A DNA stretch of 64,000 bases from Cellulophaga sp. HaHaR_3_176 (GTDB lineage: Bacteria > Bacteroidota > Bacteroidia > Flavobacteriales > Flavobacteriaceae), in assembly GCF_019021925.1 (NCBI RefSeq), contig NZ_CP058990.1:1170001-1234000 (forward strand), in the 5' to 3' direction. This document shows positions 54,038-62,911 of this stretch, in pieces. The notes beneath the pieces are model-generated. The model was not told where the DNA came from. It saw only the letters and a list, made by a program, of their open reading frames with translations, and did no database searches. Both the position numbers and the translations under genes were made by a program. The stretch's first letter is position 1; the number at the start of each line of letters is the position of its first letter.

Positions 54038-54136
54038 GTAAATACAAGAGTAAAATTTACTCTTGTATTTACTACAAAGGTAAATTTTCATTATATTTAC
54101 CCTCGTTAATAAAACGTGAGTAAATATTACCCTTGT
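54038..54136. promoter_or_regulatory. Cluster of three palindromic operator-like sites
   Basis: Site 1 (54044-54066) is a perfect palindrome with half ACAAGAGTAAA; its arms extend to 17 bp at 54038-54072. Site 2 (54074-54106) has ACAAAGGTAAAT and ATTTACCCTCGT with a longer spacer. Site 3 (54114-54136) has ACGTGAGTAAA and TTACCCTTGT. The shared half-site is close to ACAAGRGTAAA. Site 3 ends 5 bases before the Fic ATG, so binding there would block translation or transcription of fic. Confidence 0.75.
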
Positions 54137-54141
54137 TAAAT

Positions 54142-55227
54142 ATGCCAAATTTCGATAGAAACATACCCTACAATAGCTTACCGCTATTGCCTCCGAAAAA
54201 AACACTAGAGACAACTACAGTTTTACGTAAAACTATTGATGCCAGTAGAGCGTTAGCACAGCTTAATGGTATGTTAACTAATTTACCGAATCCAACGTTA
54301 TTTTTAGATACAATCCATCTACAAGAAGCAAAAGCAAGTTCCGAAATTGAAAACATTATTACAACGAATGATGATTTATACAAGTCTTTAGTTGCTGATA
54401 AAAAGTTTGATAACCCAGCTACAAAAGAAGTGCTAAGTTATAAAGAGGCTCTTTACAATGGGTTACATGATATAGAAAAACGCCCTTTTATAAGTACAAA
54501 TTTGTGTATTGAAATTGTACAAAGCATTAAAAAAAACACCGCAGGTATTAGAACAACTCCTGGCACTGCTCTAAAAAATGCCAAGGGAGAAACTATTTAC
54601 ACGCCACCAACAGGAGAAACGGTTATAAGGGAGAAATTAGCCAATTTAGAAACCTTTATTAATGAAAATGATACTATAGACCCATTAATAAAAATGGCGT
54701 TAATGCATTATCAATTTGAAGCCATACACCCTTTTAGTGATGGTAATGGTAGAACAGGACGCATTTTATTATTACTCTATTTAAAATTAGAAAAACTTTT
54801 AGACACTCCAGCTATTTATTTAAGCGAGTATATTATAAAAAACAAAGCGGATTATTATAATAAACTACGTGAAGTTACCGAAAATAATGATTGGGAATCG
54901 TGGATATTGTATATGCTAGAAATGGTAGAATATACAGCTAACAAAGGTTTAAAGCGTTTAAAAGATGTCACCGAGTTAATGGAACAAATGACTGCTGAAA
55001 TTAAAGAAAAATTGCCTAAAGCATATTCTAAAGAATTGGTTGAAATATTATTCAGACTACCATACACCAAACGACAATTTTTAATTGATGAAAAACTAGG
55101 AACCCCAAAAACGGTCGGGAATTATTTGATAGCATTAGAAGATGCTGGGTTTCTAATTTCTGAAAAGGTGGGTAAGGAAAAATTGTATCTCAATCATAGA
55201 TTAATGGCTGTTTTAGAAGCGCTATAA
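54142..55227 (+). CDS. Fic family protein (AMPylase-type) with C-terminal winged helix
   Basis: The start is the ATG at 54142; a TTG at 54133 is in frame but poorer. Residues 1-100 hold the Fic N-terminal domain with the inhibitory motif SSEIEN (Ser66-Asn71; Glu70 would block ATP). The core motif is HPFSDGNGRTGR with His196. A C-terminal winged-helix domain follows (RLPYTKRQFLIDEKLGTPKT, YLIALEDAGFLISEKVGKEK). Fic proteins transfer AMP or other nucleotides to target proteins. The palindromic sites directly upstream suggest the winged helix represses its own gene. Confidence 0.93.
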   Translation: MPNFDRNIPYNSLPLLPPKKTLETTTVLRKTIDASRALAQLNGMLTNLPNPTLFLDTIHLQEAKASSEIENIITTNDDLYKSLVADKKFDNPATKEVLSYKEALYNGLHDIEKRPFISTNLCIEIVQSIKKNTAGIRTTPGTALKNAKGETIYTPPTGETVIREKLANLETFINENDTIDPLIKMALMHYQFEAIHPFSDGNGRTGRILLLLYLKLEKLLDTPAIYLSEYIIKNKADYYNKLREVTENNDWESWILYMLEMVEYTANKGLKRLKDVTELMEQMTAEIKEKLPKAYSKELVEILFRLPYTKRQFLIDEKLGTPKTVGNYLIALEDAGFLISEKVGKEKLYLNHRLMAVLEAL

Positions 55228-55392: not shown

Positions 55393-56391
55393 ATGGCAAA
55401 TAGTACACATGCACATTTGAGATATAATATTCTAGACTATTGCTTCCGCAATAGATCTTATAGTTTTGAGGAATTATTAAGAACTGTAAATGAAGGAATT
55501 GAAGAATTATATCCTGGAGAAAACATTTCAGAAAGAACATTACGTGAGGACATTAAAGTTTTCAGGGATAATAAAGACGGATTTGGTGCACCACTAAAAG
55601 AAGGGATGAGAATTTATAAGTACTCAGACACTAATTTCTCTATTGCACAACGACCATTACAGAAATATGAACAATATTTAATTGAAGCCGCGCAGCAATT
55701 ATTATCGCGTTTTGAAAATCATCCAAAGTATAACAAATTGGCAGAAGCCTTAATTAAGTTTCAAGATGAAGAGGAACAGGAAAATGATGCTAAAAAAATC
55801 TTATTTTATGATCATAACGAAGAATACAAAGGTATTAAACACCTTAAGCCATTATATCTTGCAATTAAGAAAAAGCAAGCTTTACAGATAGTTTATAAAG
55901 GCTTTAAAGACAAGGAATCAACAGTTTTTGAATTTCATCCACATATTTTAAAACAATATAACAGAAGGTGGTTTGTCTTTGGATATAATAAAACAGCTCC
56001 AAGGTGGCAACACAGTATTCCATTAGATGAAAGACTTATAAGCTTTGAAACGCTTGAAGATACCGATTATTTAAAATCAGATATAGACTGGGACACATTC
56101 TTCAGAACAATGGTTGGTGTAACTAGAATGAACGAAAATGTACAGAAAGTAGTTGTGCGTTTCCATAATGGGAGGGGAAATTATTTTAAAACAAAACCAT
56201 TTCAACCAGATTACGAAGAGTTTTTTGAAGAAGATAAACAGGATCAGGTCTGGTTTGAGACAATAATAAATAAAGAATTAGTCCAGCAATTGTTGTCTTA
56301 TGGTCAGGATATAGAGGTGCTTGAGCCAGAGCAATTAAAAAAGCAAATGAGAGAAAATTCAAAAACAATGCAACAGTTTTATAAAGATTAA
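55393..56391 (+). CDS. WYL domain transcriptional regulator
   Basis: 332 residues. An N-terminal HTH (YNILDYCFRNRSYSFEELLR, SERTLREDIKVFRDN) is followed by a WYL domain at about 140-230 with HLKPLYLAIKKKQALQIVYK, then a C-terminal domain (VVVRFHNGRGNYFKTKPFQP). In defence loci WYL proteins often repress or activate anti-phage genes in response to a ligand such as nucleic acid. It is the first gene of the array reading into the methyltransferase-kinase fusion, 60 bases before its ATG. Confidence 0.92.
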   Translation: MANSTHAHLRYNILDYCFRNRSYSFEELLRTVNEGIEELYPGENISERTLREDIKVFRDNKDGFGAPLKEGMRIYKYSDTNFSIAQRPLQKYEQYLIEAAQQLLSRFENHPKYNKLAEALIKFQDEEEQENDAKKILFYDHNEEYKGIKHLKPLYLAIKKKQALQIVYKGFKDKESTVFEFHPHILKQYNRRWFVFGYNKTAPRWQHSIPLDERLISFETLEDTDYLKSDIDWDTFFRTMVGVTRMNENVQKVVVRFHNGRGNYFKTKPFQPDYEEFFEEDKQDQVWFETIINKELVQQLLSYGQDIEVLEPEQLKKQMRENSKTMQQFYKD

Positions 56392-56412
56392 CTATGCGGA
56401 CACTCTGCATAG
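56392..56412. promoter_or_regulatory. Palindrome between the WYL gene and the fusion gene
   Basis: CTATGC and GCATAG flank a core in which GA also pairs with TC, giving a 21-base imperfect palindrome right after the WYL stop. It may be a WYL binding site, or a hairpin that tunes read-through into the downstream operon. Confidence 0.45.
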
Positions 56413-56451
56413 TTCAGTGGTTAATTTGTACTATTGAATTTAAAGAAGCTT

Positions 56452-58947
56452 ATGAGAGAAGATAAAATAAGAGATAAAGAAATTTTTGAGCGAATAACTA
56501 ATCAAGTATGGCAATGTGCTAATATACTTCGCAATTCATTGGATGCTAGTAGTTTTCATGTTATTTTGTTTCTGCTTTCTACTTATAAAGATGAGATTTT
56601 ACAACATCCTAAATATGACAACCATTTTGATTGGTACCATCAATTTTTAGACAACATTAACAAAGATTCATTCTACAGTAAAATATATCAAGAATATGTT
56701 TCAATATTACAGAAAATTAATCCACGCCAATTAGAAGAAGTATTCTATTGTATCCAGCAAATAGATGAGTTTTATTTAAAACTCAACTTTGAAGAGATTT
56801 TTGAATTTGTACTTAAAAAAACAATTGATTTTCAAGGAAAACGATCTGGTGCATCAGTTCAACCTGTAGAAATTAGTAGGTTAGTAATTGAATTAGCTAA
56901 TCTAGATAATAACGCTAAAGTTTATAATCCTTTTGCTGGTTTGGCCTCTTTTGGTATTTATCTTAACGAAAATCAAGAATATTATGGTCAAGAAATAAAT
57001 GCATCCACTTGGGCTATTGGTCAATTGAGGCTAAAGGCCCATAATAAACCTTTTACATATGGGTACGAACGAGATAATTCTATAGAGAAATGGAATGAAT
57101 TTCAAAAGTTCGACCTTATAGTTGCTACTCCTCCATTTAAAATGCGAATACAAAGTCATTTTAGATCCTATTTAACGGGTGAAAATTATAAGGACGTTGA
57201 AAGTTTTCTAATCGATAAAGGAATTCATTCCTTAAGTAATAACGGGAAACTTATTACTGTATTTTCACTATCCTTTCTTTTTAGTGGTGGTCGTTTAGCA
57301 AAACTAAAAAGATGGTTAATAGATAATGATTTAATTGATACAATTATAACATTACCATCTGGCTTGCTTTTAAATACGAGTATTCCTGTCTGTATATTAA
57401 TATTTAAAACTATTTCTTCACGACCAGGATATATTAAATTTATAGATGCTTCCAGTTTTTTTACTAAAGATGGGCTAAGAAGTAAAAAACTTGAGGATAA
57501 AGCTATCATAGATCTTGTTAATCTGGATGAGGAAAACGAATATCTAAGATATGTAACGACTGATGAAATATATAAAAATGATTTTGATCTATCAGTTGGA
57601 AGATATTTTTTAAGAAATATTCAAGGGACAAAACTTTCCGCTTTTTCTTCTATTATTAGTGGTTTAAGAGCGCCTATCAATGAACATATGAAACAAGTCC
57701 AAATTCGAAATCTAAAGGATGACGTTTTTGACAGCGTATTGACTAGTGATGAATTAGAAAACACACCTATAAAGAGAGGAACTTTTCGAATAATCAATGA
57801 ATCTTGTTTGTTAATCGCAACAAGATGGAACACCTTAAAGCCTACGTTTTTTAATTATACCGGAGACCCAATAGTCATATCTCAAGCTGTAGTCGCATTA
57901 AGACTAGATGAAAGCATTGTTAATCCAACATTTCTAATAAATGAGTTTTCTTCAGATTATATACAAGAACAATTAGATAGTTATAGAGTTGGTACTGTGC
58001 AGCCAATGCTAAGAAAAAAAGATTTAGAAAATATCATATTCCAACTGCCTTCTATGCAAGAACAAAAGGCTAAAGTTAGCGGTATCATTGAGCTCTCAAA
58101 AAGATTGAGAAAAATAGAGTCAGAAAAAGAAAATATACTCAGTGGTATTCATAAAGAGGAAACTGAAAGCTCTACATCTTTAAGTCATATTTTAGGAAAA
58201 CCTTTACTTAGCATAGGTTCGTCAATAGAAATAATTCAAAATGCACTGTCTAATTTAGACCCAGATTGGAAGAGTTATTTAATTAGTCAAAAAAGACAAT
58301 TCACATTAGTTGATGCTTTCGATTCCATATCTAAAAATGTAAAATATATACAAGAACTTGCTGATAAAAACACGTCATTGGTAAGTGTCTCAAATTTTGA
58401 ACTAAATGAACTTCATTTTCTTAAATTTTTATCAGAATTTGTAAAAGACGAGAAGAAAAGCTTAAACAATAATATTAGTCTTAAACTAGATATACATGAG
58501 GATATTAAAGAATTAATGGCTAATCAAGTTTTAATCAAAGGAAATCCTCAAAAATTAAGAATTGTATTGGTCAATCTATTGGATAATGCTAAAAATCACG
58601 CATTTACAAATAAAGAGATGTCTAATAAAATTAATATTGAGATTTTACCATTCACAAGTAATGAAGAGGAAGCTTCTTATTTTAATTATGATATTGATGG
58701 TAAAAAATCTTATGTTGAAGTTAAAGTTTCAAATACAGGAGTCTCTTTCCTTAAAGACTTTGCTTTAAAAGATTATTCTAGAAAGAATTTTGCAGCTGGT
58801 ATTACACGTAATAGAGGTTTAGGAGGTTATGAAGTCAATGAAATATTAAAAGCACATAACGAAGGTAAAAATGCTTTAAACATTGTTTCTAACAAAGAAG
58901 ACTCGGAATATAGTACTACAGTTTCATTTATAATACCTATACTGTAA
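56452..58947 (+). CDS. Fusion: type I methyltransferase-like, specificity-like and histidine kinase domains
   Basis: 831 residues from the ATG at 56452; a TTG at 56434 is in frame. Residues ~130-370: N6-methyltransferase fold with motif I YNPFAGLASFGIYL (Asn159), YGQEINASTWAIGQLRL, and motif IV VATPPFKM, where Thr226 replaces the catalytic Asn. Residues ~385-555: HsdS-like half-unit (LSAFSSIISGLRAPINEH, MLRKKDLENIIFQLP, EQKAKVSGIIELSKRL). Residues ~570-831: kinase core with His579 in SHILGKPLLSI, N-box Asn712 in NLLDNAKNHA, NTG at 761 and RGLGGYEVNEIL. It should bind DNA and signal to the next gene's product. The stop overlaps the regulator's ATG. Methylation activity is doubtful. Confidence 0.88.
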   Translation: MREDKIRDKEIFERITNQVWQCANILRNSLDASSFHVILFLLSTYKDEILQHPKYDNHFDWYHQFLDNINKDSFYSKIYQEYVSILQKINPRQLEEVFYCIQQIDEFYLKLNFEEIFEFVLKKTIDFQGKRSGASVQPVEISRLVIELANLDNNAKVYNPFAGLASFGIYLNENQEYYGQEINASTWAIGQLRLKAHNKPFTYGYERDNSIEKWNEFQKFDLIVATPPFKMRIQSHFRSYLTGENYKDVESFLIDKGIHSLSNNGKLITVFSLSFLFSGGRLAKLKRWLIDNDLIDTIITLPSGLLLNTSIPVCILIFKTISSRPGYIKFIDASSFFTKDGLRSKKLEDKAIIDLVNLDEENEYLRYVTTDEIYKNDFDLSVGRYFLRNIQGTKLSAFSSIISGLRAPINEHMKQVQIRNLKDDVFDSVLTSDELENTPIKRGTFRIINESCLLIATRWNTLKPTFFNYTGDPIVISQAVVALRLDESIVNPTFLINEFSSDYIQEQLDSYRVGTVQPMLRKKDLENIIFQLPSMQEQKAKVSGIIELSKRLRKIESEKENILSGIHKEETESSTSLSHILGKPLLSIGSSIEIIQNALSNLDPDWKSYLISQKRQFTLVDAFDSISKNVKYIQELADKNTSLVSVSNFELNELHFLKFLSEFVKDEKKSLNNNISLKLDIHEDIKELMANQVLIKGNPQKLRIVLVNLLDNAKNHAFTNKEMSNKINIEILPFTSNEEEASYFNYDIDGKKSYVEVKVSNTGVSFLKDFALKDYSRKNFAAGITRNRGLGGYEVNEILKAHNEGKNALNIVSNKEDSEYSTTVSFIIPIL

Positions 58948-60128
58948 TGAGTAAGACATATAACATACTTTGGATTGACGATGAGCACAATGATGAAGCG
59001 CTTCTTCCATTTATTTTACAAGCAGAACAGCAAGATATAATATTAGAAGGGTATGGTTCATTTAAAGAAGGTTTTACTGCATTAGAGGCTAACATTAACC
59101 ACTACGATGTTATTTTATTAGACGCCTTATTTTTTGAAGATGAAAATTCAGAAACTCCAAATCCTGCAGGTTTAGGCTCAGCGATTAAAAAGATAAATGA
59201 ACTGATTCCTAAAAAAGCATTTCCTTATTTTGTGCTTTCTGGTCAAACCCATTTTACAGATGCAACCAATCCTATACTTGAAGCGTTTCAGCTTAGATGT
59301 TACAATAAAAAAAATGCAGATGACGTAAAAGAGCTATTAATAAACATAAAAGCAGAAGCAGACACGCAACTAGAACTTCAAATAAAACATGAAAATCAGA
59401 CGTTATTCGAAATTTTAAAGCAATACCCAAATTCTACTAGAAATACATTTATTTCAATTTTTAAAGGTCTTAAAGGCTTTCATAACAATTTTGGTGATCA
59501 ATCATATTTTACTGATTTAAGAATTATATTGGAAACCATGTTTAGAATGGCAAATGCTTGCGGTTTTTTACATGATAAATGTGTCCAAGTTGGAGGTAGT
59601 AATGTTAATTTAACCGAATCTTGCATGTTCCTTTCCGGTTGTGATACAAATCATTTAAAAGTAAGTTGCTCCGTAACACACTTTCCTAAGATTATTGCGA
59701 ATAATGTAAAAAACATAATTCATACCACAGGTGCAGCTTCTCATACTACTACTGTAGATGTTACTCAAAACATACACATACAAGCATATCGAAATAGTAT
59801 AAATACACCTTATTTATTATACTCATTAGCATTGCAATTAATGGACGTTTTGATTTGGTTCGATGGATACAGTAAAACAAACAGTAATATAGCAACAAAT
59901 AAATCGTACTGGCAAGATATAGAAGTAGATCAATTCGGAAATAAATTTAAAACTGATGTCATTACAAATGTTGCTGATAATGGTTGGGGAACTGTATTAA
60001 TTAATAATGGGACAAAAAGAATTGGTATTCATGGAGACCATATCACAAGGTTGAATCTTTCAGTCGGAGACTCGATAAAATTCACAATTAGTGAATCAGC
60101 ACAAGCAAAAAACATAACAAAATTATAA
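58947..60128 (+). CDS. Response regulator with a novel-looking output region
   Basis: 393 residues starting on the last base of the fusion gene. The receiver domain (1-130) is canonical: ILWIDDEHND with Asp11/Asp12, phosphoacceptor Asp59 in VILLDALFFED, Ser in FVLSGQTH and Lys in YNKKN. A helical middle region (~150-330) contains TDLRIILETMFRMANACGFL, which recalls DUF4145/HEPN-type helices, though I see no firm motif. The C-terminal ~60 residues (GWGTVLI..GIHGDHIT..LSVGDSIKFTI) look like a cold-shock-type OB fold. The product may bind nucleic acid or act as an effector. It lies 27 bases before hsdM. Confidence 0.85.
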   Translation: MSKTYNILWIDDEHNDEALLPFILQAEQQDIILEGYGSFKEGFTALEANINHYDVILLDALFFEDENSETPNPAGLGSAIKKINELIPKKAFPYFVLSGQTHFTDATNPILEAFQLRCYNKKNADDVKELLINIKAEADTQLELQIKHENQTLFEILKQYPNSTRNTFISIFKGLKGFHNNFGDQSYFTDLRIILETMFRMANACGFLHDKCVQVGGSNVNLTESCMFLSGCDTNHLKVSCSVTHFPKIIANNVKNIIHTTGAASHTTTVDVTQNIHIQAYRNSINTPYLLYSLALQLMDVLIWFDGYSKTNSNIATNKSYWQDIEVDQFGNKFKTDVITNVADNGWGTVLINNGTKRIGIHGDHITRLNLSVGDSIKFTISESAQAKNITKL

Positions 60129-60155: not shown

Positions 60156-61676
60156 ATGATCACAGGACAAATAAAACAACAAATAGACCAAATCTGGAAT
60201 ACCTTCTGGACTGGTGGAATATCCAACACCATCACAATCGTTGAACAGTTAACATACCTAATCTTCATAAAAGATTTAGATGAAACTGAAACTCGAAACG
60301 AACGTATGGCAAAACGTCTAAATAAAGAATTCAGTCCTATTTTCGGTCCAGAACAGCAAAACTTTAGATGGAAGAATTTAAAAGAAATGGACGTACAAGC
60401 GCGTCACAACATTTTTAATAATTCTGTGGATGGTATTTTCCCTTTCATACGCAGTTTAGGTAGTGAAAAAAGTTTGTTTTCCACTTATATGAAAGATGCG
60501 TCTTTCGGAATTAACAAAGCGGCAACACTAGATTTAGTCATTGAAAAACTAGAACGTGTAGACATGTCCAAACAAGACATAAAAGGAGATATTTACGAGT
60601 ACCTTTTATCTAAACTAGAAGGTGGTGGTACATCTGGCCAGTTTAGAACACCAAGACACATTATTAAGTTAATGACAGAAATGATGCAACCTACGCTAGA
60701 AGACACCATTTGTGATCCTTCAGTAGGTACAGCAGGTTTTCTAGTAGCAGCCAAAGAATATATAGACAAGCATTATAGTGTTACAGAAATAGACAAACAT
60801 AAAAGCCACATAAACAAACACATGTTTAACGGTACCGAGTTTGATGCTACAATGCTACGCATTGCCTCAATGAATCTATTTTTACACGGTGTAGAAGAAC
60901 CTAATATTGTAGACGTAGATGCCGTAAGTAAAGATAATACAATAAGTGATGCTTATACATTAGTATTGGCAAACCCACCATTTAAAGGGACTATAGATAA
61001 AGAAAGTATTGCACCGGGTTTACGTAATGTAACCGATACCACAAAAACAGAATTACTCTTTTTAGCTTTAATGCTACGTCAATTGAAGAAAGGTGGTAGA
61101 GCAGCAGTAATTGTACCAGATGGGGTTCTGTTTGGAGCAGGAAAAGCATTTAAAAGCATACGTTCAGAAATTGTAAAAAACCACAAACTAGAAGCAGTTA
61201 TCTCTTTACCTAGTGGTGTGTTTAAACCGTATTCTGGAGTAAGCACAGCCATTATTGTATTTACAAAAACCGATAATGGTGGTACAGACAATGTTTGGTT
61301 TTACGATATGCTAGCCGATGGTAAAAGTTTAGATGATAAACGTAATTTACTGGTAGAACCAGAAGTTTTTGAAGCCTTTTCGTTTGATGGCGTGATTACA
61401 GATGATGCAAAAGAATTGCATGAAAAATTTAACCTTCCAGATATTTTAGCGCGTTACCCAAAAAGAAATAAAGATACTAGAGCTAGAACAGAACAATCTT
61501 TTTTGGTGCCATTTAAAGAAATTAAGGAAAACGATTGGGATTTGTCTATTAACCGTTATAAGGAAATTGTGTATGAAGAAGTAGAATATGATGCGCCTAA
61601 AGTAATAATAGACAGGATAAACGAATTAGAGGACTCTAGAAAAGACTTGATGTCTAATTTAAAACAGGCATTTTAA
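60156..61676 (+). CDS. hsdM: Type I restriction-modification methyltransferase subunit
   Basis: 506 residues, full length. An N-terminal HsdM domain (VEQLTYLIFIKDLDETETRN) is followed by the methyltransferase domain with YLLSKLEGGGTSGQFRTPRH, SAM motif I in ICDPSVGTAGFLVA, and catalytic motif IV LANPPFKG (Asn273 in NPPF). The motifs are intact, in contrast to the fusion protein upstream. With HsdS it should methylate adenine at a bipartite site. It overlaps hsdS by one base (TAATG), so their output is coupled. The restriction subunit HsdR is not within the window. Confidence 0.96.
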   Translation: MITGQIKQQIDQIWNTFWTGGISNTITIVEQLTYLIFIKDLDETETRNERMAKRLNKEFSPIFGPEQQNFRWKNLKEMDVQARHNIFNNSVDGIFPFIRSLGSEKSLFSTYMKDASFGINKAATLDLVIEKLERVDMSKQDIKGDIYEYLLSKLEGGGTSGQFRTPRHIIKLMTEMMQPTLEDTICDPSVGTAGFLVAAKEYIDKHYSVTEIDKHKSHINKHMFNGTEFDATMLRIASMNLFLHGVEEPNIVDVDAVSKDNTISDAYTLVLANPPFKGTIDKESIAPGLRNVTDTTKTELLFLALMLRQLKKGGRAAVIVPDGVLFGAGKAFKSIRSEIVKNHKLEAVISLPSGVFKPYSGVSTAIIVFTKTDNGGTDNVWFYDMLADGKSLDDKRNLLVEPEVFEAFSFDGVITDDAKELHEKFNLPDILARYPKRNKDTRARTEQSFLVPFKEIKENDWDLSINRYKEIVYEEVEYDAPKVIIDRINELEDSRKDLMSNLKQAF

Positions 61677-62911
61677 TGAAAGTAGATTTTAATCATATTC
61701 CTAAAGGTTGGAAAAAAGTAAAAATTGCTAAAAAACTATTCTTTCAAGAAGGACCAGGTGTTAGAAAATGGCAGTTTACAGATAAAGGAATTAAGCTTTT
61801 AAATGTAGGTAATATAAACAATGGTAAAGTAGATTTGTCAGCAACAGATAAGCATTTGTCTACTGAAGAAGCAACAGGTAAATATGCACACTTTTTGATT
61901 GATGAAGGCGATTTGTTAATTGCGTGTTCTGGTATTGTTGTTGATAATTTTCATAATAAAATTGCTTTTGCTAAAAAAGAGCATTTACCATTATGTTTAA
62001 ATACAAGTACAATGCGTTTCAAAGCATTGAAGGATGATGTAGATTTAAACTATTTTAAATATTATTTACAAACAGTTCATTTTACGTCTCAGCTTCAAAA
62101 ATTGATTACAGGTTCTGCTCAATTAAATTTTGGCCCAAGCCATATTAAAAAAATAGATTTTTTATTACCACCACTAAAAACCCAAAAACACATCGCCCAA
62201 ATTCTAGACGATGCAGCAGCCTTACGTGATAAAACCAAACAACTACTCAAAGAATACGATTTGCTAGCACAAGCTATCTTTTTGGAGATGTTTGGGGATC
62301 CGGTTATAAATGAGAAAGGATGGGAAGAAAATCCGATTGGAGCTTATATAAACATTAAGCACGGCTATGCTTTCAAGAGTGAATTTTTTGTACCAAAAAG
62401 TAGTTATACTCTGCTTACTCCTGGAAATTTTAACGAAGCTGGAGGTTATAAAAGTCAAGGTCAAAAACAAAAGTATTATGATGGAGATATTCCTAATGAT
62501 TATATATTAAAGAATGGAGATATACTTATAGCTATGACAGAACAAGCTACAGGATTACTAGGTAGTGTAATTTCAGTTCCAGAGGAAGGGATATTTCTTC
62601 ATAATCAAAGACTTGGATTAATTGAGTATAAGAAAAATTTGAATTCTACTTTTATTTATACGGTTTTTAATCAAAAAAATATTAGAGCTAGAATACAAAT
62701 GGAATCTACAGGAACAAAAGTTAAACATACGTCCCCAAAAAAATTGATGGATATTACAATTGGATTTCCACCAATCAAGCTCCAAAACCAATTCGCAGAA
62801 AAGATTACCTTAATCGACCAACAAAAAAAGTTAGCAAAACAAGAGCTCCAAGAAAGTGAAGATTTGTTCAATTGCTTATTACAAAAAGCGTTTAAAGGGG
62901 AGTTGGTATAG
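61676..62911 (+). CDS. hsdS: Type I restriction-modification specificity subunit
   Basis: 411 residues with two target recognition domains, each followed by a conserved helix. The first half ends in IDFLLPPLKTQKHIAQILDD and then DAAALRDKTKQLLKEYDLLA. The second ends in ITIGFPPIKLQNQFAEKITL, then LIDQQKKLAKQELQESEDLF. Each TRD reads one half of the DNA target. The coding sequence starts within the hsdM stop. Length is normal. Confidence 0.95.
   Translation: MKVDFNHIPKGWKKVKIAKKLFFQEGPGVRKWQFTDKGIKLLNVGNINNGKVDLSATDKHLSTEEATGKYAHFLIDEGDLLIACSGIVVDNFHNKIAFAKKEHLPLCLNTSTMRFKALKDDVDLNYFKYYLQTVHFTSQLQKLITGSAQLNFGPSHIKKIDFLLPPLKTQKHIAQILDDAAALRDKTKQLLKEYDLLAQAIFLEMFGDPVINEKGWEENPIGAYINIKHGYAFKSEFFVPKSSYTLLTPGNFNEAGGYKSQGQKQKYYDGDIPNDYILKNGDILIAMTEQATGLLGSVISVPEEGIFLHNQRLGLIEYKKNLNSTFIYTVFNQKNIRARIQMESTGTKVKHTSPKKLMDITIGFPPIKLQNQFAEKITLIDQQKKLAKQELQESEDLFNCLLQKAFKGELV

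What the first reader, a model, noticed from the sequence alone, without database searches (positions are those of the whole stretch)
56452..60128. Methyltransferase-specificity-histidine kinase fusion overlapping a response regulator inside a type I RM operon
One 831-residue protein joins an HsdM-like domain, an HsdS-like half-unit and a histidine kinase core. Its stop codon overlaps the ATG of a two-component response regulator, and intact hsdM and hsdS follow 27 bases later. A WYL regulator leads the array. Two-component signalling welded to a DNA modification module suggests the cell measures DNA sequence or methylation state (for example phage DNA) and relays it to the regulator. I do not recall a described defence system of this kind.
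Basis: partly seen in the sequence, partly recalled or inferred. Interest (0 to 1): 0.95.

Follow-up and report, generated by a model that had tools for sequence, protein, structure and literature searches.

The report
Methyltransferase-shaped sensor kinase guarding restriction
This genome carries a protein that joins a DNA-methyltransferase module and half a DNA-recognition unit to a histidine-kinase core, followed by a receiver-domain partner and a restriction system, an arrangement whose first two genes recur in 75 of 80 related loci examined; it is predicted to sense phage attack through a methyltransferase that, in this copy, lacks the usual catalytic residue, and would then switch on its partner as a second line of defence.

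Summary
Window 56452-58947 encodes one 831-residue protein (N6-methyltransferase fold, one HsdS half-unit, histidine-kinase core), overlapping by one base a 393-residue receiver-domain protein; intact hsdM and hsdS follow, and hsdR plus a CBASS operon lie just outside. In 80 of 80 related loci a kinase ORF lies just upstream of the regulator, in 75 with all three domains. The phosphorelay is strictly conserved (His579 197/197; regulator Asp59 199/201) while the methyltransferase catalytic Asn is not (88/197; TPPF here), so the methyltransferase looks like a sensor. Its recognition half-unit evolves with its own methyltransferase and does not track the variable HsdS next door, so it probably does not read that system's target. 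The regulator shows no DNA-binding domain: REC, a private output domain with near-invariant R192/H266, and usually a cold-shock-like end. A conserved palindrome, probably the WYL regulator's operator, has near-perfect copies at two places in the genome: before this operon and before the CBASS operon. I commit to a methyltransferase-decoy tripwire that would trigger a non-transcriptional effector; ligand and output activity are untested. Nearest known kinds: Detocs and HisKin-conflict/TOTE systems. Interest 0.82.

The parts
55393..56391 (+). WYL-WCX transcription regulator (BrxR/CapW-like)
   Evidence: Pfam WCX 43.7 bits (cut-off 23.9), WYL 29.5 (21.8); WYL gene within 200 bp upstream of the fusion in 55 of 80 loci
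56390..56414 (.). 25-bp palindrome AACTATGC-N9-GCATAGTT (core ACTATGCG-N7-TGCATAGT), predicted operator, probably of the WYL regulator, overlapping the WYL stop codon
   Evidence: spacer-7 motif <=1 mismatch within 150 bp upstream of the fusion in 66 of 76 loci vs 3.2 in shuffles; genome-wide <=1 mismatch only here and before CBASS
56452..58947 (+). 831-aa methyltransferase / half-specificity / histidine kinase fusion
56788..57609 (+). N6_Mtase domain, residues 113-386 (motif I NPFAGLASF at 159; motif IV TPPF at 226, codons 57127-57138)
57718..58131 (+). HsdS-like half-unit: one target-recognition domain plus coiled-coil-type helix (residues 423-560; helix 535-563)
   Evidence: Pfam Methylase_S 34.6 bits; profile matches solved S subunits 5ybb_D, 3okg_A (E about 3e-13); helix from model
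58180..58944 (+). histidine kinase core, residues 577-831: H-box His579 (58186-58188), N-box N712 (58585-58587), G boxes N761-x-G763 and G789-x-G791
   Evidence: His 197/197, N712 196/197, G763 196/197, G789/G791 196/197
58947..60128 (+). 393-aa response regulator-type protein
58947..59351 (+). REC domain (D12, phospho-acceptor D59 at 59121-59123, S98, K121)
59364..59912 (+). uncharacterised helical output domain (MID), near-invariant R192, E196, H266 (59742-59744)
   Evidence: R192 201/201, E196 196/201, H266 199/201; no Pfam family and no credible PDB relative found
59913..60125 (+). C-terminal OB/cold-shock-like domain; 14 of 80 regulators are too short (<330 aa) to hold it
   Evidence: relatives match S1CSD-TOTE-2 (3 of 32), OB_RNB (1), CSD (1); lengths
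60156..61676 (+). intact hsdM (DPSVGTAGF, NPPF)
61676..62911 (+). intact hsdS, two Methylase_S stretches

Best explanation
The 831-residue protein joins a type I methyltransferase-like module, one HsdS half-unit and a histidine-kinase core, and it is predicted to act as a cytosolic decoy that would be engaged when a phage attacks type I methyltransferases (most likely with a DNA-mimicking anti-restriction protein), then likely autophosphorylate on His579 and pass the phosphate to Asp59 of the partner. SHOWN (sequence and comparison): the architecture, the one-base gene overlap, the conserved pairing, invariant phosphorelay residues, repeated loss of the catalytic Asn with the SAM-pocket residues kept, no coupling detected to the neighbouring HsdS. 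INFERRED: two copies dimerise through the kinase helices, which follow the HsdS-type helix after a short linker of low model confidence, so that two half-units form an M2S-like groove; occupancy of that groove changes the helix register and the kinase output; phosphorylation frees the partner's R192/H266 domain, helped by an RNA- or ssDNA-binding OB end, to act directly (growth arrest or RNA damage) and not through a promoter. The WYL protein would keep the operon and the adjacent CBASS operon off through one shared palindrome. My odds by step: phosphorelay from fusion to partner 0.85; methyltransferase module used as sensor and not as modifier 0.7; ligand is an anti-restriction mimic and not DNA or SAM 0.4; partner is a direct effector 0.6.
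Against: No ligand, phosphotransfer or defence assay. 14/80 loci hold >=5 kb downstream without a detectable hsdM, where a guard of RM would have nothing to guard in cis. The window kinase domain is below the Pfam HATPase_c cut-off and its H-box lacks the acidic residue that usually follows the His (sequence; the rule is recalled). The model is of low confidence exactly at 562-579 and 782-790. The output domain lacks the canonical HEPN Rx4-6H motif (T at 261 in 180/201), so RNase activity is not implied. 88/197 fusions keep the motif IV Asn and may still methylate. A weak REC-hsdM correlation exists (rho 0.14, p 0.02). Similarity to Ocr-bound structures only reflects that Ocr binds methyltransferases. 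The palindrome is kept in 10 of 12 loci without a WYL gene in the held sequence and lies near the WYL gene in only about 4 of 27 WYL loci without the fusion, so the WYL protein as its binder is not secure.
Confidence: 0.35

Rival explanations
1. DNA reader: the fusion dimer binds a fixed bipartite DNA motif (or a modified-base form found on phage DNA) without methylating it and the kinase reports binding. In one form the motif is the palindrome TGCA-N7-TGCA before its own gene.
For: HsdS-like half-unit retained and conserved; fold and the PP residues of motif IV largely retained (P227 189/197, P228 190/197); the palindrome has the bipartite shape and 7-base spacer of type I half-unit sites (shape recalled) and is kept in 10 of 12 loci without a held WYL gene.
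Against: A fixed unmodified motif would also be in the host genome, and most copies lack the catalytic Asn to methylate it; the half-unit does not track the neighbouring RM specificity; the palindrome also occurs next to WYL genes of loci without the fusion (L119, L122).
Confidence: 0.3
2. RM governor: the phosphorelay does not kill but tunes the neighbouring restriction enzyme (restriction alleviation or activation), for example by the regulator's MID domain docking on the DUF4145 domain at the N-terminus of HsdR.
For: RM next door in 58/80 loci; MID resembles the HsdR DUF4145 domain weakly (hhalign E 5e-4, probability 31%; unrelated controls 0.11-0.53; HsdR DUF4145).
Against: Sensor and hsdM distances uncorrelated (rho 0.05); 14/80 loci show no hsdM.
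Confidence: 0.2
3. SAM gauge: the retained SAM pocket senses phage SAM-degrading enzymes or SAM depletion and the kinase reports it.
For: SAM-pocket residues kept (N159 179/197, G163 191/197, E181 190/197) although the catalytic Asn is not.
Against: Does not explain the conserved HsdS half-unit; cofactor binding itself untested.
Confidence: 0.1
4. Working methyltransferase with a regulatory tail: the fusion is an active orphan modification enzyme whose kinase end only regulates it.
For: NPPF/NPPY in part of the family (NPPF 43 and NPPY 38 of 197).
Against: TPPF in the window; Asn changes state at least 15 times while the kinase His never varies.
Confidence: 0.05

Closest known systems
Type I RM methyltransferase M2S (EcoR124I, EcoKI, PacII)
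   Same: M fold, S half-unit with its helix
   Different: M and half S in one chain, fused to a kinase core; catalytic Asn often lost; recognition domain not diversifying
Detocs defensive two-component system (Rousset et al. 2023; recalled, the paper is not held)
   Same: Histidine kinase plus receiver-domain effector as an anti-phage system (recalled)
   Different: Sensor here is methyltransferase-derived and the output domain is a private one; no PADLOC family matched the regulator
HisKin-conflict / TOTE conflict systems (Pfam PF22561, PF22563, PF22707; origin in Burroughs and Aravind 2020 recalled, paper not held)
   Same: Kinase-type domain, REC proteins and S1/CSD domains in conflict loci; the REC domains are related (hhalign E 1.3e-4); in L122/L124 (RT fused to HisKin-conflict) and L119/L125 (RT, then HisKin-conflict) a similar palindrome lies between the RT and a divergent WYL gene; 3 of 32 regulators match S1CSD-TOTE-2
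   Different: Sensor there is a reverse transcriptase; our kinase and MID show no detectable homology to theirs (hhalign E 0.15 and 0.57)
BrxR / CapW WYL regulators (PMC9122601, PMC9122588; passages read)
   Same: WYL-WCX protein at the head of defence operons, palindromic promoter site of 19-27 bp
   Different: Here one palindrome type is found before a two-component/RM operon and a CBASS operon; binding untested

Membership tests
Type I HsdM methyltransferase | N6-adenine methyltransferase fold | tested here: met
Type I HsdM methyltransferase | catalytic (N/D)PP(Y/F) motif IV | tested here: not met
   TPPF in the window; Asn in 88 of 197 relatives
Type I HsdM methyltransferase | stand-alone M chain working with a separate S subunit | tested here: not met
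   half S and kinase core in the same 831-aa chain. The TIGR00497 cut-off (242.75) does not help: the fusion scores 86.4 and the intact neighbour hsdM only 68.0
Type I HsdS specificity subunit | two recognition domains with two conserved helical regions | tested here: not met
   one Methylase_S stretch, residues 423-560
Two-component histidine kinase | phospho-acceptor His and ATP-binding N, G1, G2 boxes | tested here: met
   His579 197/197; N712 196/197; G763, G789, G791 196/197 each; G1 Asp position is Asn in 195/197
Two-component histidine kinase | HATPase_c domain above the curated cut-off | tested here: inconclusive
   17.0 bits vs 26.4 in the window; 21 of 30 scanned fusions match at E<=0.05
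Two-component histidine kinase | autophosphorylation and phosphotransfer | not testable with these tools
   needs a bench assay
Response regulator | REC fold with acidic pocket, phospho-Asp, Ser/Thr and Lys | tested here: met
Response regulator (transcription type) | DNA-binding output domain | tested here: inconclusive
   only a DUF1081 match at E 0.1 in the window regulator; no HTH family among the 9 families listed for 32 regulators
HEPN ribonuclease | Rx4-6H motif | tested here: not met
   position 261 is Thr in 180/201, H266 199/201
HEPN (DUF4145-like) fold | profile similarity to DUF4145 | tested here: inconclusive
   hhalign E 5e-4, probability 31%, to 20 HsdR N-termini; unrelated controls 0.11-0.53
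HisKin-conflict / TOTE system | PF22561 kinase domain | tested here: not met
   not among the 13 families of 30 scanned fusions at E<=0.05; hhalign E 0.15
Detocs | DtcA/DtcB/DtcC homology | tested here: inconclusive
   PADLOC 2.0.0: 0 families for the regulator, only M/S models in the 25 of 53 rows shown for the fusion; whether that library holds Detocs was not checked
BrxR/CapW WYL regulator | WYL plus WCX domains at the head of a defence operon | tested here: met
BrxR/CapW WYL regulator | binds and represses a palindromic promoter site | not testable with these tools
   site predicted only

The most novel reading that the evidence does not exclude
A new kind of bacterial immune sensor: a pseudo-methyltransferase decoy that imitates the type I modification enzyme phages must disarm, wired by a histidine-to-aspartate phosphorelay to a previously undescribed effector domain, and placed with CBASS under one operator, so that disabling restriction trips a second, abortive line of defence.
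Probability: 0.3. Interest if true: 0.93.

Novelty: new variant of a known kind. Interest (0 to 1): 0.82.

Why it matters
It would tie restriction-modification and two-component signalling into one immune circuit, and would give a concrete case of an enzyme fold turned into a guard. The invariant His/Asp pair and the lost catalytic Asn make the idea directly testable with single point mutants. The private output domain (226 regulator relatives; the 120 listed bear no functional name beyond 'hypothetical', 'conserved protein of unknown function' or a response-regulator label) is a candidate new effector. The shared palindrome predicts that restriction, this relay and CBASS are released together.

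Tried and rejected
Set aside as the main reading because WYL genes of loci without the fusion can carry it between divergent genes (L119 exact, L122 one mismatch), because a WYL gene 12 kb from a fusion in L121 has its own one-mismatch copy, and because it recurs before hsdM, CBASS, WYL and other genes (29 exact hits in 795 other upstream regions versus 0-3 for the nine other spacers). Against the WYL reading: of 27 WYL loci without the fusion (30 loci less L089, L090, L101) only about 4 (L091, L095, L099, L105) have a copy within 150 bp of the WYL gene; most of those WYL proteins are only about 30-37% identical. My odds: WYL 0.6, fusion 0.25. Spacers 4 and 9 were also above shuffles before the fusion (19 and 20 of 76 against about 2).

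Palindrome as a terminator or generic hairpin: perfect arms of 7 or more in only 10 of 48 intergenic regions (shuffles 7%); the bipartite motif explains them better.

Output domain as canonical HEPN RNase: Rx4-6H absent; no homology to the C-terminal part of the TOTE-type REC protein (E 0.57). PDB profile search of MID gave a designed coiled-coil protein at 2e-4 and nothing else below 0.2, judged a coiled-coil match.

Mobile carriage: no relative in IMG/VR or in phage records; three Myroides plasmids carry a 24%-identical regulator.

Same-genome paralogues at E<=0.001: none.

Fold search of the kinase and MID parts: the VIA rows cover model residues 8-557 of the fusion and 2-145 of the regulator only, so absence of matches elsewhere means nothing.

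A whole-genome depletion test of the motif was not possible.
Full report

SURROUNDINGS. After hsdM and hsdS come, at or beyond the window end, a 444-aa gene without a convincing family, a GIY-YIG-like gene (22.4 bits, cut-off 22.6), hsdR with an N-terminal DUF4145 domain, and a CBASS operon: SMODS nucleotidyltransferase, bacHORMA_1, TRIP13-type AAA and a SMODS-associated NUDIX effector. A SoFic-type Fic gene lies upstream of the WYL gene.

DISTRIBUTION. A scan of one genome per species found 82 relatives of the regulator, 80 kept. By record title 77 of 80 are Bacteroidota; the others are MAGs titled Fibrobacter (L051), Algicola (L070) and Clostridia (L076), whose binning I did not check. All 80 have a kinase ORF just upstream; 75 carry methyltransferase, half-unit and kinase by my profiles (L029 among them is split by a frame break); the other five begin at a contig end (L036, L071), are broken (L050) or lack the half-unit hit (L057, L061). 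WYL lies within 200 bp upstream in 55 of 80. Another hsdM-like gene is held in 58 of 80, an hsdR-like one too in 26 of those; 14 of 80 have at least 5 kb downstream without an hsdM, 8 of 80 have too little sequence to tell. Where no hsdM was seen, GmrSD-type restriction (L022, L082), an AIPR protein (L068, short flank) or a large helicase (L056) stood downstream in some. In random draws 6 of 296 genomes of the order had the regulator, and 18 of 395 of the phylum matched the profile, 7 of which are weak REC-only matches; both counts include the own genome. So the system is sparse and patchy, as defence genes are. No relative in viral contigs or phage records.

WHAT SELECTION KEEPS. Over 197 fusions (window, 119 of the 120 listed relatives, 77 of 80 locus proteins; three short or broken ones left out) His579 is invariant, N712 196, G763 196, G789 and G791 196. 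Over 201 regulators (window, 120 listed, 80 loci) D59 is 199, D12 198, K121 193. By contrast the first residue of motif IV is Asn in 88, Thr 55, Ser 21, His 11, others less. On a FastTree tree of 77 sequences, built without those columns, at least 15 changes between Asn/Asp (31) and lost (46) are needed. The pocket residues for SAM (N159 179, G163 191, E181 190 of 197) and the two prolines after the Asn (189, 190) are kept. This is what a methyltransferase-shaped sensor that need not methylate would look like; Ser or Thr at that place also occurs in N4-cytosine enzymes (recalled), so loss of activity is a prediction.

WHAT IT DOES NOT READ. In 27 loci (window plus 26 of 77, those with strong hsdM and hsdS scores) the fusion half-unit diverges as fast as its methyltransferase (median 36% and 36%), whereas HsdS recognition domains are at 19% against HsdM at 57%. 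Fusion and hsdM distances are uncorrelated (rho 0.05, p 0.23); REC and hsdM weakly correlated (0.14, p 0.02); HK and REC strongly (0.79, p 0.0005); REC and MID not clearly (0.13, p 0.10). The hsdM sample has a narrow identity range (51-83%), which limits this test. The fusion half-unit is hardly more like its own locus's HsdS than others (mean rank 0.42, chance 0.5; a blunt test, as weak or missing alignments count as ties). So kinase and receiver look like a matched pair that moves independently of the RM genes, and the sensor probably does not read the RM system's own sites.

PALINDROME. Between WYL and fusion lies a 25-bp palindrome. Within 150 bp upstream of the fusion, TGCA-N7-TGCA with at most one mismatch is in 66 of 76 loci (3.2 expected from shuffles), exact in 46 of 76. 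In the own genome the extended form with at most one mismatch occurs at two places: before the fusion and, 21 bases after hsdR, 43 bases before the CBASS nucleotidyltransferase. The control there, the pattern read backwards, was given only at two mismatches, where it has as many matches (4 and 4) as the pattern (3 and 4). Flavobacterium omnivorum (L013) shows an exact copy before a 76%-identical nucleotidyltransferase. The WYL protein is the likely binder, in line with BrxR and CapW, which bind palindromes of 19-27 bp and repress (PMC9122601, PMC9122588; passages read), and because some WYL genes without the fusion carry it; but 10 of 12 loci without a held WYL gene keep it and most WYL loci without the fusion lack it, so the fusion as binder stays open (see Tried and rejected).

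OUTPUT DOMAIN. A profile search with the middle domain returned proteins without Pfam annotation, many of about 300 residues, as expected for REC plus middle domain without the C-terminal part (96 proteins). R192, E196 and H266 are near-invariant. A weak profile match to the DUF4145 domain of HsdR (E 5e-4, probability 31%; unrelated controls 0.11 or worse) and the RxxLE...ASH pattern suggest a HEPN-like fold without the RNase motif. In the HEPN survey DUF4145 is listed with the motif mostly conserved (80%) and in operons with R-M (PMC3710099, passages read).

MECHANISM. The decoy reading fits best: dispensable catalysis, retained fold and SAM pocket, independence from RM specificity, frequent RM neighbours, and CBASS beside it here. 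Anti-restriction mimics such as Ocr bind M2S complexes (structures 7eew, 7bst, 2y7c among the matches), and PARIS, Gabija and Zorya II are said to respond to Ocr (PMC12255303, passage read). A DNA reader, an RM governor and a SAM gauge remain open.

LITERATURE. Ten searches (in only 20 of 429 and 20 of 82 papers were listed) returned no paper that, from its listing or the passages read, describes a methyltransferase-specificity-kinase fusion. The library lacks most subscription papers; Burroughs and Aravind 2020 (J Bacteriol; recalled to predict histidine-kinase-based immune systems) and the Detocs paper are not held, so prior mention cannot be excluded. Hence 'new variant of a known kind'.

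Noticed in passing
G000 1238606-1238628 (L002:10606-10628), beyond the window end: The same palindrome as before the fusion stands between hsdR and a CBASS operon (SMODS, HORMA, TRIP13, 2TM-NUDIX effector); predicts joint control of both systems.
   Followed up: yes
L119/L125 and L122/L124: WYL divergent from a reverse transcriptase (fused to HisKin-conflict in L124, followed by it in L125), then a small protein, an iREC-REC protein ending with RNTKAAH/RNTKVSH, a helicase (TBP-TOTE in L124) and, in L124, an S1CSD-TOTE protein; a palindrome of the same type lies between the divergent genes.
   Followed up: partly
L066:5554-9945, L067:5573-9964, L073:5540-9958: Fusion variants of 1463-1472 aa with about 780 extra N-terminal residues; a database relative of 1230 aa (P0066) appears to hold two methyltransferase-like domains.
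   Followed up: no
L029, L050: Broken copies of the fusion (frame split over several ORFs) next to an open regulator frame.
   Followed up: no
L002:4924-6258 (window coordinates 62924-64258, crossing the window end): 444-aa gene between hsdS and the GIY-YIG-like gene, no convincing Pfam or PADLOC family, with relatives near the RM genes in L013, L024, L083 and L086.
   Followed up: no
L024:11241-12527 and ORFs of like size and place in L062, L075, L083: A 426-428 aa ORF (DUF2130 in L024; the others not scanned) between regulator and hsdM, with an exact palindrome before it.
   Followed up: no
window 54133-55227: SoFic-type Fic/AMPylation gene just upstream of the WYL regulator (PADLOC SoFic 384.6 bits).
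   Followed up: no
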